From Myxococcaceae bacterium (GTDB lineage: Bacteria; Myxococcota; Myxococcia; Myxococcales; Myxococcaceae), in assembly GCA_016793095.1 (NCBI GenBank), contig JAEUJQ010000060.1, positions 124,001 through 188,000 on the forward strand: DNA of 64,000 nt, given 5' to 3'. The notes beneath the pieces were generated by a model, which saw nothing but the letters and a program-made list of their open reading frames with translations, made no database searches and was not told where the DNA came from. How positions within the stretch are numbered: position 1 is the first letter of the stretch; each line of letters begins with the position of its first letter. Shown here one piece after another: positions 11,495-18,634 of the stretch. Made by a program: the position numbers and the translations under genes.

Positions 11495-11503
11495 CCGAAA
11501 AAC

Positions 11504-11683
11504 GTTCCCCGCCACTGAGCCGTGTGTACCGCTTCCACTGAACCGAGAGGTTCAGGTGGGGACCAAAGTCGGCTTCCTTCGGCGTCCTCCCCGAGAGGAG
11601 GCATGCACCCGGAAGCCGAAACAGCCCCCTATGGTTGGTATCGGTTCGAGCGTTTGCTGCACATCACGAGCCCCGCAGGGAAC
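11504..11683 (-). ncRNA. ssrS: 6S RNA
   Basis: About 180 bases with 6S architecture. The ends form a closing stem: GTTCCC (5' end, 11683) pairs with GGGAAC (3' end, 11504), inside GTTCCCTGCGGGGCTCGTG and GGCTCAGTGGCGGGGAAC. The 3' half contains CCACCTGAACC-TCTC-GGTTCAGTGG, matching the conserved hairpin of the E. coli RNA (CACCTTGAACC...GGTTCAAGG). The terminal arm is CGGCTTCC...GGAAGCCG, capped by CCTCC-CGAGA-GGAGG. The large unpaired centre between these is the bubble that mimics an open promoter and binds sigma70 RNA polymerase in characterised 6S RNAs. A T-rich terminator follows. The exact ends are estimates from the stem. Confidence 0.8.
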
Positions 11684-11762
11684 AGCCTGTATGAACCTCC
11701 TGAGCGCTCGAATCATAAGGCGACGGACTTGGGTTTCAAGGGTGGTAACCTGTCGCGTACTC

Positions 11763-12632: not shown

Positions 12633-13540
12633 GTCTTCCGGCCCGGATCGGCGCCTGGGAGGTGCTGAAGCCGCTGGGTTCAGGGGGCATGGCCGAGGTG
12701 TTTCGCGTACGCGGGACCGAGGGGCGGTTCCTCGGGAAGGAGTACGCGCTCAAGCGGCTCCTGCCCACGCTCGAGGCCGACGCCGAGTCCGTGCGGCTCT
12801 TCAAGGCCGAGGCCGAGCTGTCACGCCACCTGCACCACCCCAACATCGTCGAGGTCCACGACGTCGGCGGTGAGGGCGACTCCATCTACATGGTGATGGA
12901 CTTCATCGACGGGCGCGACGTCGGGCAGATCCTCAAGCGCTGCCGTCAGAAGAAGGTGTTCTGGCCGGTGGACTTCGCGGTCTACCTCACCAGGGCGTTG
13001 CTCGACGCGCTCGAGTACGCCCATCACGCCACCGATCCCCAGGGCCAGCCCCTGGGGATCATCCACTGCGATGTCTCTCCCTCGAACTTCTTCGTCTCGC
13101 GCACCGGCGAGCTCAAGCTGGGCGACTTCGGCGTGGCCCGCTCGTTGCTCGAGGGCGGCGCCGACCAGGTGATGGGCAAGCCGTACTACCTCTCGCCCGA
13201 GGCCCTCGAGGGCGCCTTGACGCCGCAGGTCGATCTCTGGGCCGTCGCCGTCACGCTCTACGAGCTGATCACCTTGCAGCGGCCCTTCCTCGGGAAGACG
13301 CCGGAGCAGGTGTTCGACGCCATTCGTCACTCCCGCTACGCGCCGGTGGAGCAGGTGCGGGAGGGCGCGCCGCCCGTGATCGACGGCCTGCTCGCGCGCG
13401 CCTTCGATGCGGATCCGACGCACCGCTACGCCTCGGCCGCCGAGTTCGCCAGGGCCCTCACGCCCCTCTACGACGAGCGAGTCGGCACGCCCCTGGCCAT
13501 CTCGGCGGTGGTGCGGGGCCTGTTCGGCACGGCTGACTGA
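12629..13540 (+). CDS. Serine/threonine protein kinase, cytoplasmic, non-RD type
   Basis: A 303-residue protein that is almost only a kinase domain. It has the glycine loop LGSGGMAEVFRVRG (16-29), catalytic Lys42 (YALKRL), the catalytic loop HCDVSPSN (146-153), DFG (166-168) and SPEALEG in the activation segment. The residue before the catalytic Asp is Cys instead of Arg, so this is a non-RD kinase; the Asp and Asn are intact, so activity is still plausible. There is no transmembrane segment or C-terminal sensor domain. The GTG start overlaps the stop of the TPR gene, suggesting that kinase and exported TPR protein work together. Confidence 0.9.
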   Translation: MSLPARIGAWEVLKPLGSGGMAEVFRVRGTEGRFLGKEYALKRLLPTLEADAESVRLFKAEAELSRHLHHPNIVEVHDVGGEGDSIYMVMDFIDGRDVGQILKRCRQKKVFWPVDFAVYLTRALLDALEYAHHATDPQGQPLGIIHCDVSPSNFFVSRTGELKLGDFGVARSLLEGGADQVMGKPYYLSPEALEGALTPQVDLWAVAVTLYELITLQRPFLGKTPEQVFDAIRHSRYAPVEQVREGAPPVIDGLLARAFDADPTHRYASAAEFARALTPLYDERVGTPLAISAVVRGLFGTAD

Positions 13541-14329: not shown

Positions 14330-15469
14330 TCAGAGGCCGAGGCTGGCGGGGACGTGCCGCGCGAGCGCTGTCACCACCGCGTCGATGTGGCCGCTCGTGG
14401 TGGTGCGACCCAGGGACAGCCGCAGGCTGGCCTGGGCCTCGGCCGCCGAGAGGCCCATCGCGGTCAGCACGTGCGAGGGCGAGAGCGAGCCTGAGGCGCA
14501 GGCCGCGCCGGTCGAGACGCAGAGGCCCTCGAGGTCGAGCGCGATCAGCAGGGCTTCTCCGTCGGCGCCCGGAAAGCACAGGTTGCTGGTGGTGGCGACG
14601 CGCGTCGCGTTGGCGGCGGTGACGCGGGTGTCGGGCAGGGCGGCGCAGACGCGACGCTCGAGGTCGTCTCGCAGGGCCGCGAGGCGGGGCGGTTCGGTCG
14701 AGAGCTCCGTCAGGCTCGTCTCGAGCGCGAGCACCAGCGCCTCGGCCAGGGCCACGCTCGGCGTGCCTCCGCGCCGGCCGTTCTCCTGGTGGCCCGGCGT
14801 CAACGCGGCCATGGGCACCTGCCGTCGCGCGATCAGCGCGCCGACGCCGGCGGGTCCACCGAGCTTGTGCGCGGAGAAGGAGAGGAGATCGGCGGGCACC
14901 TCGCGCAGCGTGGCTGGCACCTTCCCGAGCGCCTGCACCGCGTCGGTGTGGAAGACGATGCCGCGCTCGGCGCAGGCGCGCGCCACGGCCTCGACCGGCT
15001 GCAGCGCGCCGGTCTCGTTGTTCACCCACATGAGCGAGCACAGCGCGACGTCATCGCCGAGGGCCGCCAACATCGCGTCGGCCGCCACCGCGCCCGAGGG
15101 CTCTGGCCTGATGCGCTCGACCCGCGCGCCCAGCGCCTCGAGGCGCTTCACCGCGCCGAGCACGCAGGGGTGTTCGATCGCCGACGTCACGACGGCGCTG
15201 CGACGGAGGTCCGCCCGCCCGAGCCACCCGCCGATGAGCGCCAGCGCCGCCGCCTCGCTGCCCGAGCCGGTGAAGACCACCTCGCGCGGGCTCGAGGCGC
15301 CGAACGCCCGCGCGACCGCTTCGCGGGCCACGTCGAGGCGCTTTCGCCCCTGCCGACCCACCTGGTGCACCGACGACGGGTTGCCCCAGGTCTCAGCGAA
15401 GGCGCGTGAGAGGTGCGCCGCCACCTGAGGGAGCAGCGGCGCGCCCGCGTTGAAGTCGAGGTAGATCAC
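14330..15469 (-). CDS. Cysteine desulfurase, NifS/IscS family
   Basis: A 379-residue class V PLP aminotransferase-fold enzyme. His100 (SAIEHP), Asp176 (HTDAVQALGK) and Lys202 (SFSAHKLGGPAG, which carries PLP) are present. The persulfide Cys is residue 324 in GAACASGSLSPSHVL. These fit removal of sulfur from cysteine onto the active-site Cys for Fe-S clusters, tRNA thiolation or selenium handling. The start is ATG, overlapping the DHH gene stop by four bases, so it is the last gene of a fic-DHH-desulfurase operon. No iscU or iscA gene is adjacent. The operon is divergent from a selenocysteine tRNA 2 kb away, which leaves selenium supply as a speculative role. Confidence 0.9.
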   Translation of the reverse strand: MIYLDFNAGAPLLPQVAAHLSRAFAETWGNPSSVHQVGRQGRKRLDVAREAVARAFGASSPREVVFTGSGSEAAALALIGGWLGRADLRRSAVVTSAIEHPCVLGAVKRLEALGARVERIRPEPSGAVAADAMLAALGDDVALCSLMWVNNETGALQPVEAVARACAERGIVFHTDAVQALGKVPATLREVPADLLSFSAHKLGGPAGVGALIARRQVPMAALTPGHQENGRRGGTPSVALAEALVLALETSLTELSTEPPRLAALRDDLERRVCAALPDTRVTAANATRVATTSNLCFPGADGEALLIALDLEGLCVSTGAACASGSLSPSHVLTAMGLSAAEAQASLRLSLGRTTTSGHIDAVVTALARHVPASLGL

Positions 15470-16533
15470 GCTTCATCCGAGAGGAGCGAGCCCCCCCGCT
15501 CACCCTCGACGCCGAAGGCCGCCTTGAAGCGCTGCACCACCTCGCGCTTCGTCGCTGCGCGCGCCGCTCGTTTGCCGACCAGGGGAATCCGCGCGCCCGC
15601 CATGCTCCCGTGGCCGCCCGCAGAGCCTCCGAGGCCTTCGCACACCTCGCGGATCAGCCGGCCCGCGTTCATGCGCCGATCAGAGCAGCGGAGCGAGAGG
15701 TAGAGCTGGCTGCGGTAGCTGCCCGAGGCCAGCGACCACTTGGCGTCCTCCAGGAAGGACAGCCGCTCGGCGACCTCTGCCACCATGTCAGGCGAGTAGA
15801 CCTCGCCGAGATCGGTGATCACCGCGCCGGTGAAGAGCTGCGCCTTCTCGATCGCTGCGTGGTAGAGCCGGAAGTAGCGCAGCGGCAGCCTCGGGTGCTC
15901 GATCTCGGCGAGCAGGTTGCGGTCGATGCGCGGGAACAGCCAGAGGTAGCTATCGACGTCGGGATCGCGGGTCTGCCGCTCGAGGTCTCGCGTGTCCGCC
16001 TTGATGCCGTAGTAGAGCGCCGTCGCCAGCTCGGGGGTCGGCTCGATGCGTGCGGCCTGCAGGTACTCTGCGAGCAGGGTCGAGGTCGCGCCGTAGAGGC
16101 CCGAGGCGAGATCGGCGAAGGGGTTGTTGAGCTCGTCGTCGCGCGTCGGGTGGTGATCGATGACGATGTCGGCCGTCACCCCGGCCGGCAGGGCATGGTT
16201 CTTCACCGACTGCTGCGTGTCCACCAGGGCAAAGAGATCGTAGGTGGAAGGATCGACCTGCGAGATCGGCACGATCGGCAACTTCAACACGCGCACGAAG
16301 GCCGAGTTCTCGGCCCGCCCGATGATGCCGCCGTAGGCGACGTCGGTCGGGATGCCCAGGCGCGAGTGGAGCACGACCGCGAGCGCCACCGCGGCCGCCA
16401 TGGAGTCCGGATCAGGGTTGTCGTGGGTGAGCACGAGGCCGCGTCTGCGGCCGCGGAACAGCTTCGCCAACCGATCGACCTTCGCTTTCGCGCTGAGGCC
16501 CGACACGGTCATGGCGAGAGGAGCAGCGCCCAC
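15466..16533 (-). CDS. DHH/DHHA1 phosphoesterase (NrnA-like)
   Basis: A 355-residue protein. The motifs are DNPDPDS (38-44), Asp105 in LVDTQ, DHHP (126-129) and GIKADT downstream, which bind two metal ions in the DHH family. The C-terminal DHHA1 domain carries GGHGS at 306-310. Related proteins degrade nanoRNA or cyclic dinucleotide products, or dephosphorylate pAp. The start is GTG; a later in-frame ATG at residue 8 is possible. It overlaps the cysteine desulfurase by four bases and follows the Fic-fold gene by nine bases. The exact substrate (short RNA, pAp or a dinucleotide) cannot be told. Confidence 0.85.
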   Translation of the reverse strand: MGAAPLAMTVSGLSAKAKVDRLAKLFRGRRRGLVLTHDNPDPDSMAAAVALAVVLHSRLGIPTDVAYGGIIGRAENSAFVRVLKLPIVPISQVDPSTYDLFALVDTQQSVKNHALPAGVTADIVIDHHPTRDDELNNPFADLASGLYGATSTLLAEYLQAARIEPTPELATALYYGIKADTRDLERQTRDPDVDSYLWLFPRIDRNLLAEIEHPRLPLRYFRLYHAAIEKAQLFTGAVITDLGEVYSPDMVAEVAERLSFLEDAKWSLASGSYRSQLYLSLRCSDRRMNAGRLIREVCEGLGGSAGGHGSMAGARIPLVGKRAARAATKREVVQRFKAAFGVEGERGGSLLSDEA

Positions 16534-16542
16534 GGGCTGGCC

Positions 16543-17367
16543 TCAGCGGTACGCGCGACCGAGATCGCGGAAGTACTTCAGGCCGTTGTCGAGGCTGTTC
16601 TCCATCCAGTCCATCAGCGCCTTCGAGAAGACCAGGGGCGAGCCGCGGAAGGTGTCGAAGTACTCCTTGCGGTCGGTGGAGGGGATGATCACCGGCATCA
16701 GCCCGTTGCGCAGCAGGATGTAGTTCGACAGGAACCGCCCCACCTTCCCGCTGCCCTCGGTGAACGGGAAGATCTGGATGAAGCCGTGCTGAACGCGCGC
16801 GGCCTGCATGATCGGGTGCAGCTCACGGAAGTCGGCGGTGGCCGTCCAGTCGATGAGCTTCTCGAGGTTGGGCTGGATCTTCGAGGGCTGGGCGATCTCG
16901 TGCACGTAGGTGCGGTGCAGGGGCATGTCCCTGCGGAAGCCCTGCTTCTCCCGCTCCTTCGCGAGCTCCTTCTCGGTGCGCTCCCGGCGCTCGGCCAGCG
17001 CGCGCGCCTGCTGCGCCTCGGGCGTGTTGCCGGTGACGAGATCGTGAATGCGCTTCACGAACGTCATGGTGATCGCCGCGTTCTTCTTCGCCGTCTTCGA
17101 CTCCTCGCGGATGAAGTCCAGCGCGGTCTTGTGGTTGCGGATCTCCCAGACGATCGGCAGCAGGCTGGCCTCGGCCGCCACCGCGCCGGGGTGCAGCGCC
17201 GCCGACAGCTCGTGCACCTCGTAGACGGTGCCCTCGAGCGCGCTGTCGTGACGCACCCAGGACATCTCGAACCGATCGAGGAAGTCCTGCACCTCGGGCC
17301 GGCGCTGGGTGAGGAGGTCCTTCAGCTGCCGTGTCTTGTCTTCGATCGACTGAAACCGCTCTTTCAC
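16543..17367 (-). CDS. Fic-fold protein with degenerate active site
   Basis: A 274-residue protein. The N-terminal helix WVRHDSALEGTVYEVHEL resembles the inhibitory and dimer helix of Fic proteins (S-A-L-E-G). The Fic core is ARVQHGFIQIFPFTEGSGK then VGRFLSNYILLRNGL. In an active enzyme this reads HPFxxGNGRxxR; here the catalytic His is Phe200, Asn is Ser206 and the first Arg is Lys208, while Glu204 and Arg211 remain. AMP transfer by the usual mechanism is therefore unlikely. The region between (residues 85-180) is unusual, with a Lys/Arg/Glu-rich stretch. GTG start. It leads the operon with the DHH and desulfurase genes. Confidence 0.82.
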   Translation of the reverse strand: MKERFQSIEDKTRQLKDLLTQRRPEVQDFLDRFEMSWVRHDSALEGTVYEVHELSAALHPGAVAAEASLLPIVWEIRNHKTALDFIREESKTAKKNAAITMTFVKRIHDLVTGNTPEAQQARALAERRERTEKELAKEREKQGFRRDMPLHRTYVHEIAQPSKIQPNLEKLIDWTATADFRELHPIMQAARVQHGFIQIFPFTEGSGKVGRFLSNYILLRNGLMPVIIPSTDRKEYFDTFRGSPLVFSKALMDWMENSLDNGLKYFRDLGRAYR

Positions 17368-17374
17368 AGAGCGG
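17356..17374 (-). promoter_or_regulatory. Hairpin enclosing the start codon of the Fic-fold gene
   Basis: On the minus strand a stem CCGCTC / GAGCGG (extendable to eight pairs with flanking G-T and A-T) presents the GTG start in the seven-base loop TGTGAAA. Such a hairpin could lower translation initiation. An AT-rich island upstream on the same strand contains TAAAAT (17427-17432), a possible -10 box, without a clear -35. Confidence 0.35.
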
Positions 17375-17496
17375 CTCTCTAGTCCGTTTCAGGCGTGGCG
17401 TCGACCGAAAACAGCAAAACGCGATGATTTTATTGGTGAATTTGGCCATGTGGGGCGAAGTGGGCGCGCCCCTGTCCCGGTGTTATTGAGGTGGGT

Positions 17497-17592
17497 GGCG
17501 GAGCGACCGGCTCTGGTGACCGGCGCGGTCTTCAAAACCGTTGAGCTGGCGCGCGAGCGTCGGTTGGTGGGTTCGATTCCCATGCTCCGCCG
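17497..17592 (+). tRNA. selC: tRNA-Sec (anticodon TCA), selC
   Basis: A 96-base tRNA with the special form of selenocysteine tRNA. The acceptor stem has eight pairs, GGCGGAGC (17497-17504) with GCTCCGCC (17584-17591), then the discriminator base G. The D loop holds the conserved GGTGA. The anticodon loop is CTTCAAA, giving TCA, closed by GCGGT / ACCGT. The variable arm is long, pairing GCTGGCGC with GCGTCGGT through G-T wobbles. The T arm is GTGGG-TTCGATT-CCCAT. No CCA is encoded. These features together (8-bp acceptor, long variable arm, UGA anticodon) are unique to tRNA-Sec, so the host decodes UGA as selenocysteine. selA, selB and selD are not in the window. Confidence 0.95.
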
Positions 17593-17605
17593 AACCCGCG
17601 GCACG

Positions 17606-18634
17606 TCAATCCAGGCCGCGCTCGTAGAGCTCGTCTTCGTCCAGGCCGAGCAGGTGGCCGACCTCGTGGAGCACGGTGATGCGGATCTCCTCGATCAGCT
17701 CGTCGCGGCTGCGGGCAGAGCGCTCGAGGTTGTTCTGGTAGAGGGTGATCCGGGTGGTCTCGTGATCGGCGGCGCTCACCGGGCTGCGCTCGTCGATGGC
17801 GGCGCCGCGGAAGAGCCCCAGCACCAGCGGTGAGACGCCTTCCTTCAGCTCCTCGGTCGAGGGGATCGCCTGCACGTCGATCACGCAGTTCGAGAGGTGC
17901 GGCTTCGCGTGCTCTGGCAGGCGCGCGATCGCCTCCTCCACCGTACGGTCGAAGTCCGCCGGGCTCAGGTGCACCGTCGCCGGGAAGTCGTCGGGCGCCA
18001 GCGCACGCGCCTTCGAGAAGAACGGGGCGGGATCGGCGCCGGCCCGCTCGGCGAGCAGCCCGAGGTAGTGGTGGCTCCAGGCCTCGTCGGGGAAGTCCTT
18101 CGTCAGGCCCTCGAAGACGCGCCGCGCTTCGTCGAAGCGCCCCAGCTCGAAGAGCGCCTGGCCCTGCTCGAGCCGGGCCTCCGGGTGCTGCGGATCGAGC
18201 CGAAGGGCGGTGGCGACGTGGACCAGCGAGTCCGCGAAGTCGCCCAGCTGGTTGAGCCCGCTCGCTCGCAGGAGCTCGGCCTCGAGGGTGAGCTCCTCGT
18301 CGCGCCGAAACAGGCGCTCACCGGCGTCGAGCAGCTCGAGGCCCTGCTCGATCAGCTCCCGATCGTCCTCCGCGTCACGGATCAGCAGGTCGGCCTCGGC
18401 CAGCACCCACGCCGGGTTCTGCGGCTCGAGTGACTTGAGGCGCTCGTAGAGGTCCACCGCCTCCTGCAGATCGCCGAGCGCCCGGTGCGCCATGGCGCGA
18501 AGGTCGAGGGCGTCGATGTCATCGGGCGCCTCATGCAGCATGCGGTCCGTGATGCGCAGCGCGGCCTCGCCGTCTCCCGCGTCGAGCGCCTCCTCCGCCT
18601 CTTCGATGAGCTGCGCGAGCCGTGGGTCAGGCAC
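17606..18634 (-). CDS. TPR protein with C-terminal zincin metallopeptidase domain
   Basis: A 342-residue protein. Residues 1-205 hold TPR-like helices (EALDAGDGEAALRITDRML, DLRAMAHRALGDLQEAVDLY). The last 120 residues end with TVLHEVGHLLGLDEDELYERG, where His323, Glu324, His327 and the Glu/Asp near 333 fit HExxHxxGxxE. From memory this matches the PF06262 (zincin-like) type, which is usually a stand-alone protein of about 130 residues; here it is fused to TPRs. There is no signal peptide, so it is probably cytoplasmic. Its target is unknown. Confidence 0.8.
   Translation of the reverse strand: MPDPRLAQLIEEAEEALDAGDGEAALRITDRMLHEAPDDIDALDLRAMAHRALGDLQEAVDLYERLKSLEPQNPAWVLAEADLLIRDAEDDRELIEQGLELLDAGERLFRRDEELTLEAELLRASGLNQLGDFADSLVHVATALRLDPQHPEARLEQGQALFELGRFDEARRVFEGLTKDFPDEAWSHHYLGLLAERAGADPAPFFSKARALAPDDFPATVHLSPADFDRTVEEAIARLPEHAKPHLSNCVIDVQAIPSTEELKEGVSPLVLGLFRGAAIDERSPVSAADHETTRITLYQNNLERSARSRDELIEEIRITVLHEVGHLLGLDEDELYERGLD

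What the first reader, a model, noticed from the sequence alone, without database searches (positions are those of the whole stretch)
17497..17592. Selenocysteine tRNA in a window without selA, selB or selD
The tRNA shape (8-bp acceptor, TCA anticodon, long variable arm) is unambiguous for selC. Its presence shows that the organism reads UGA as selenocysteine, so annotated stops elsewhere in the genome may be wrong. No in-frame UGA selenoprotein was recognised in the window itself.
Basis: seen in the sequence. Interest (0 to 1): 0.6.

Follow-up and report, generated by a model that had tools for sequence, protein, structure and literature searches.

The report
Ordinary selenocysteine tRNA of a myxobacterium
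The sequence is a normal bacterial selenocysteine tRNA gene; its partner genes selA, selB and selD lie elsewhere in the same genome, and at least three genes there use UGA as a selenocysteine codon, so the finding is real but ordinary.

Summary
Window 17497-17592 (+) is a canonical bacterial tRNA-Sec (selC): 8-bp acceptor plus 5-bp T stem, UCA anticodon, 9-bp variable stem, G73. Compensatory changes across 20 relatives show that its fold is under selection.

The suspicion built into the title does not hold. The whole genome (8.81 Mb MAG, Myxococcaceae/Archangiaceae) has selA, selB and selD on three other contigs, each above its curated cut-off. Among 60 relatives, 45 have both selC and selA, 11 neither, 4 selA only, none selC only.

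UGA is used as Sec. Three genes have an in-frame TGA at the redox site: a peroxiredoxin (FTGG-U-TRE), an AhpC/TSA_2 protein (RHFG-U-MFC) and a SelW-like protein (YCTA-U). In the peroxiredoxin, 16 of 24 orthologues read TGA and 8 a Cys codon, and a SECIS-like hairpin is best kept in the TGA versions. No selenoprotein was found in the window.

One oddity noticed in passing: selC lies in opposite orientations between the same neighbours in close relatives, so the gene has been inverted in place, apparently more than once. Otherwise ordinary.

The parts
17497..17592 (+). selC, tRNA-Sec(UCA), 96 nt with G73; CCA not encoded
   Evidence: ARAGORN; Rfam RF01852 70.3 bits; pair counts
17497..17504 (+). 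acceptor stem 5' strand GGCGGAGC, pairs with 17584-17591
   Evidence: sequence; helix 1 100% paired in 17 distinct relatives
17532..17534 (+). anticodon TCA (reads UGA)
   Evidence: invariant in 20 aligned relatives
17544..17565 (+). long variable arm, 9 bp with GCGA loop
   Evidence: all nine pairs have two-sided changes among relatives
17567..17583 (+). T arm, 5-bp stem
   Evidence: helix 5
17584..17592 (+). acceptor 3' strand GCTCCGCC plus discriminator G73

Best explanation
This is the single selC gene of a complete bacterial selenocysteine system. The transcript gets CCA added, is charged with serine by SerRS, converted to Sec-tRNA-Sec by SelA using selenophosphate from SelD, and carried by SelB to UGA codons followed by a SECIS hairpin in at least three redox proteins. 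Shown here by sequence: the tRNA and its constrained fold; full-length SelA, SelB (with winged-helix domains) and SelD in the same genome; UGA at catalytic positions; a conserved hairpin after one UGA. Inferred from established knowledge: charging, transcription and the actual incorporation of selenium.
For: tRNA. Sec machinery in G000: selB C66:39454-41364 (SelB-wing_2 and SelB-wing_3 domains), selA C69:157254-158573, selD C19:70112-71038. Co-occurrence in 60 relatives: 45 both, 11 neither, 4 selA only, 0 selC only. Selenoproteins: peroxiredoxin C33:12577-13068 with TGA at 12700; AhpC-TSA_2 protein C14:68756-69301 with TGA at 68882; SelW-like CxxU protein with TGA at C51:195170. Orthologues carry TGA or a Cys codon at that column. 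The 8-bp hairpin starting 15 nt after the peroxiredoxin UGA keeps on average 7.9 of 8 pairs in 16 TGA versions and 5.3 of 8 in 8 Cys versions.
Against: No expression or protein data. The genome is a draft (93 contigs), though rated 98.65% complete. Four relatives (G014, G018, G051, G056) have selA but no strong selC match; they are draft genomes rated 86-97% complete, and the search used strict filters. FdhA and SelD in this genome carry Cys, not Sec. A sigma-70-like promoter was not found by a consensus scan upstream of selC.
Confidence: 0.97

Rival explanations
1. A decayed or orphan tRNA-Sec (pseudogene) in a genome that no longer uses selenocysteine.
For: No sel gene or selenoprotein gene in the window; no consensus promoter just upstream.
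Against: selA, selB and selD are intact elsewhere; every helix is kept with compensatory changes; three genes have UGA at catalytic sites.
Confidence: 0.01
2. A selC-like tRNA that inserts cysteine or serine at UGA (a recoding or suppressor variant) rather than selenocysteine.
For: Such selC-like tRNAs exist in some bacteria (own knowledge, not tested here).
Against: Canonical 8/5 fold with G73, a single strong selC in the genome, full SelA/SelB/SelD set, and UGA found at redox sites and followed by a conserved hairpin in the peroxiredoxin.
Confidence: 0.02

Closest known systems
Bacterial tRNA-Sec (selC), Rfam RF01852; 8/5 fold described in PMC5330540
   Same: 8-bp acceptor, 5-bp T stem, UCA anticodon, long variable arm, G73
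   Different: The D stem has four G-C pairs, then a C/A mismatch and a U-G pair, instead of six clean pairs; close relatives also vary here
Selenocysteine trait of Myxococcota, e.g. Anaeromyxobacter dehalogenans with Sec peroxiredoxins, thioredoxins, FdhA and SelD (PMC1794560, Table 3)
   Same: SelA/SelB/SelD with peroxiredoxin-type selenoproteins
   Different: Here FdhA and SelD carry Cys; the UGA genes found are a peroxiredoxin, an AhpC/TSA_2 protein and a SelW-like protein

Membership tests
bacterial tRNA-Sec (selC) | UCA anticodon | tested here: met
   17532-17534
bacterial tRNA-Sec (selC) | 13-bp acceptor plus T stack (8/5 fold) | tested here: met
bacterial tRNA-Sec (selC) | exceptionally long variable arm | tested here: met
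   9-bp variable stem, all nine pairs with two-sided changes
bacterial tRNA-Sec (selC) | discriminator G73 | tested here: met
   G at 17592, invariant in 20 relatives
bacterial tRNA-Sec (selC) | 6-bp D stem with 4-nt loop | tested here: inconclusive
   Four strong pairs 17507-17510/17520-17523; the extension has a C/A mismatch and a U-G pair; the outer four pairs are 89.7% paired in relatives
bacterial selenocysteine trait | selA, selB and selD in the genome | tested here: met
bacterial selenocysteine trait | genes with in-frame UGA at Sec positions aligned with Cys homologues | tested here: met
bacterial selenocysteine trait | SECIS hairpin right after the UGA | tested here: met
   peroxiredoxin: 8-bp hairpin in 15 of 16 TGA versions, 7 bp in the other; Cys versions 3-7 bp. 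For the other two genes only single-sequence folds were made
bacterial selenocysteine trait | selenium actually incorporated | not testable with these tools
   needs 75Se labelling or mass spectrometry

The most novel reading that the evidence does not exclude
selC with its own promoter is a short cassette that has been inverted in place repeatedly in Myxococcaceae, so the gene sits on either strand between the same Fic-domain and zincin/TPR neighbours, perhaps because the acceptor arms act as the inverted repeats.
Probability: 0.45. Interest if true: 0.3.

Novelty: new member of a known kind. Interest (0 to 1): 0.1.

Why it matters
It shows that this myxobacterial MAG decodes UGA as selenocysteine, so standard gene calls cut or miss at least three redox proteins (a peroxiredoxin, an AhpC/TSA_2 protein and a SelW-like protein). 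It adds one more example of a scattered sel gene set. Nothing here changes what is known of selenocysteine decoding.

Tried and rejected
Formate dehydrogenase alpha as the selenoprotein: the full-length hit carries Cys (VDTCARVCH). SelD as a selenoprotein: Cys form (SSCAGC). AhpD-like hit C76:3079 with '1 TGA': the TGA is only the normal stop. Thioredoxin-family hits: none has an internal stop. In-frame UGA scan of the window and about 396 kb of further own-genome DNA by codon usage (one stretch overlaps the window): three candidates, none in the window and none with a redox motif; the known peroxiredoxin passes this filter but the AhpC/TSA_2 gene does not, so the filter is not fully sensitive. 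At a looser cut-off the window candidates were ends of ordinary genes (7877, 16545, 57156) or unconvincing frames. A literature search for Myxococcus xanthus selenoproteins found nothing.

Full report
Observation. ARAGORN reports a single tRNA in the window, tRNA-SeC(tca) at 17497-17592 on the + strand, and Rfam RF01852 matches 17497-17591 with 70.3 bits against a gathering score of 47. Read from the sequence it has an 8-bp acceptor stem, a 5-bp T stem, the anticodon TCA, a 9-bp variable stem closed by a GCGA loop and G73; CCA is not encoded. The D stem has four strong pairs and then a C/A mismatch and a U-G pair. On an alignment of 20 selC genes from relatives the cloverleaf is paired in 97.9% of cells, 20 of 31 pairs show changes on both sides, and no shuffle of 500 reaches any of the five measures. 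This is a gene under selection, not a pseudo-tRNA.

Machinery. The window is part of an 8.81-Mb draft genome in 93 contigs (98.65% complete). selB (C66:39454-41364, 324 bits), selA (C69:157254-158573, 560 bits) and selD (C19:70112-71038, 380 bits) are all over their NCBIfam cut-offs and free of internal stops. SelB carries the EF-Tu-like domains and two winged-helix domains; SelA both of its Pfam domains. The sel genes lie on four contigs, so 'a window without selA, selB or selD' is expected. Named relatives of the neighbouring Fic-domain gene are Myxococcaceae/Archangiaceae MAGs (taxonomy).

Co-occurrence. In 60 genomes of the genus, family and order, 45 have a selC of 66 bits or more together with selA over the cut-off, 11 have neither, 4 have selA only and none has selC only (counted from the tables). 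Weaker RF01852 matches of about 85-90 nt occur in genomes with and without selA and are probably other type-II tRNAs (inference). All seven genomes of the genus have both.

Use. In-frame UGA genes were sought by family searches that read through stops. A peroxiredoxin at C33:12577-13068 has TGA in PKAFTGG-U-TRE. Among the 24 orthologues in which the motif was found (this genome's included), 16 have TGA and 8 a Cys codon at the same column. Fifteen nt after the UGA an 8-bp hairpin (GCGUACCG-GGAC-CGGUAUGC) keeps 7.9 of 8 pairs on average in the TGA versions and 5.3 in the Cys versions, as expected of a SECIS element; related sequences are not independent, so this is supporting rather than conclusive. 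An AhpC/TSA_2 protein at C14:68756-69301 has RHFG-U-MFCREQ; 10 of the 11 orthologues found by motif have TGA and one TGC. A SelW-like protein at C51 has YCTA-U-GY with TGA at 195170; its conservation was not tested. Formate dehydrogenase and SelD use Cys. Peroxiredoxin and SelW-like proteins are known bacterial selenoprotein families, and Anaeromyxobacter has Sec peroxiredoxins (PMC1794560).

Mechanism. The standard bacterial route follows: seryl-tRNA-Sec, SelA with selenophosphate from SelD, delivery by SelB to UGA plus hairpin. The parts are shown; charging, expression and selenium incorporation are inferred.

In passing. selC lies between a Fic-domain gene (16543-17367 -) and a zincin/TPR gene (17606-18634 -). 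In the window it is opposite to both. In G001, G003, G005, G007, G021 and G023, and in named relatives L182-L185, it is on their strand; in G006 and G024 it is opposite, as here. In G002 and G004 it is opposite to Fic, but the zincin gene was not found on the other side; in G010 it is opposite to both, with longer gaps. The Fic-side leader is alignable in both states, so the gene, not the region, has turned round. On a tree of the neighbouring proteins at least four changes are needed, but several branches are poorly supported and within the genus the co-oriented state is confined to one clade, so at least two events is the safe reading. The consensus scan of this window's interval found no sigma-70-like promoter; that the promoter turned with the gene is a guess from TA-rich hexamers about 12 nt upstream in both states. 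Assembly error is unlikely in so many separate genomes but was not tested with reads.

Verdict. A real, functional-looking and ordinary selC.

Noticed in passing
window 17368-17605, with L124-L130, L143, L145, L146, L176-L188: selC lies on opposite strands between the same Fic and zincin/TPR neighbours in different close relatives; it has been inverted in place, at least twice and by parsimony four times on a weakly resolved tree.
   Followed up: partly
window 11502-11684 (-): 6S RNA (Rfam RF00013, 79.4 bits).
   Followed up: no
window 14330-16533 (-): Cysteine desulfurase of the NifS/IscS kind and a DHH-family phosphoesterase near selC throughout the genus; a role of the desulfurase in selenium delivery is possible but untested.
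   Followed up: no
G030 loci L107 and L117: A relative with no selA or strong selC match still has TGA at the Sec position of both selenoprotein genes; probably missing contigs (87% complete), possibly lost machinery.
   Followed up: no
L136 (G012:C1:5182915-5183007): A second tRNA-Sec (59.5 bits, UCA) about 22 kb from the main selC in a 13.2-Mb single-contig genome.
   Followed up: no
G037:C147:88223-89684: selA is split into two separate matches of one gene in different frames although selC is intact; frameshift or sequencing error.
   Followed up: no
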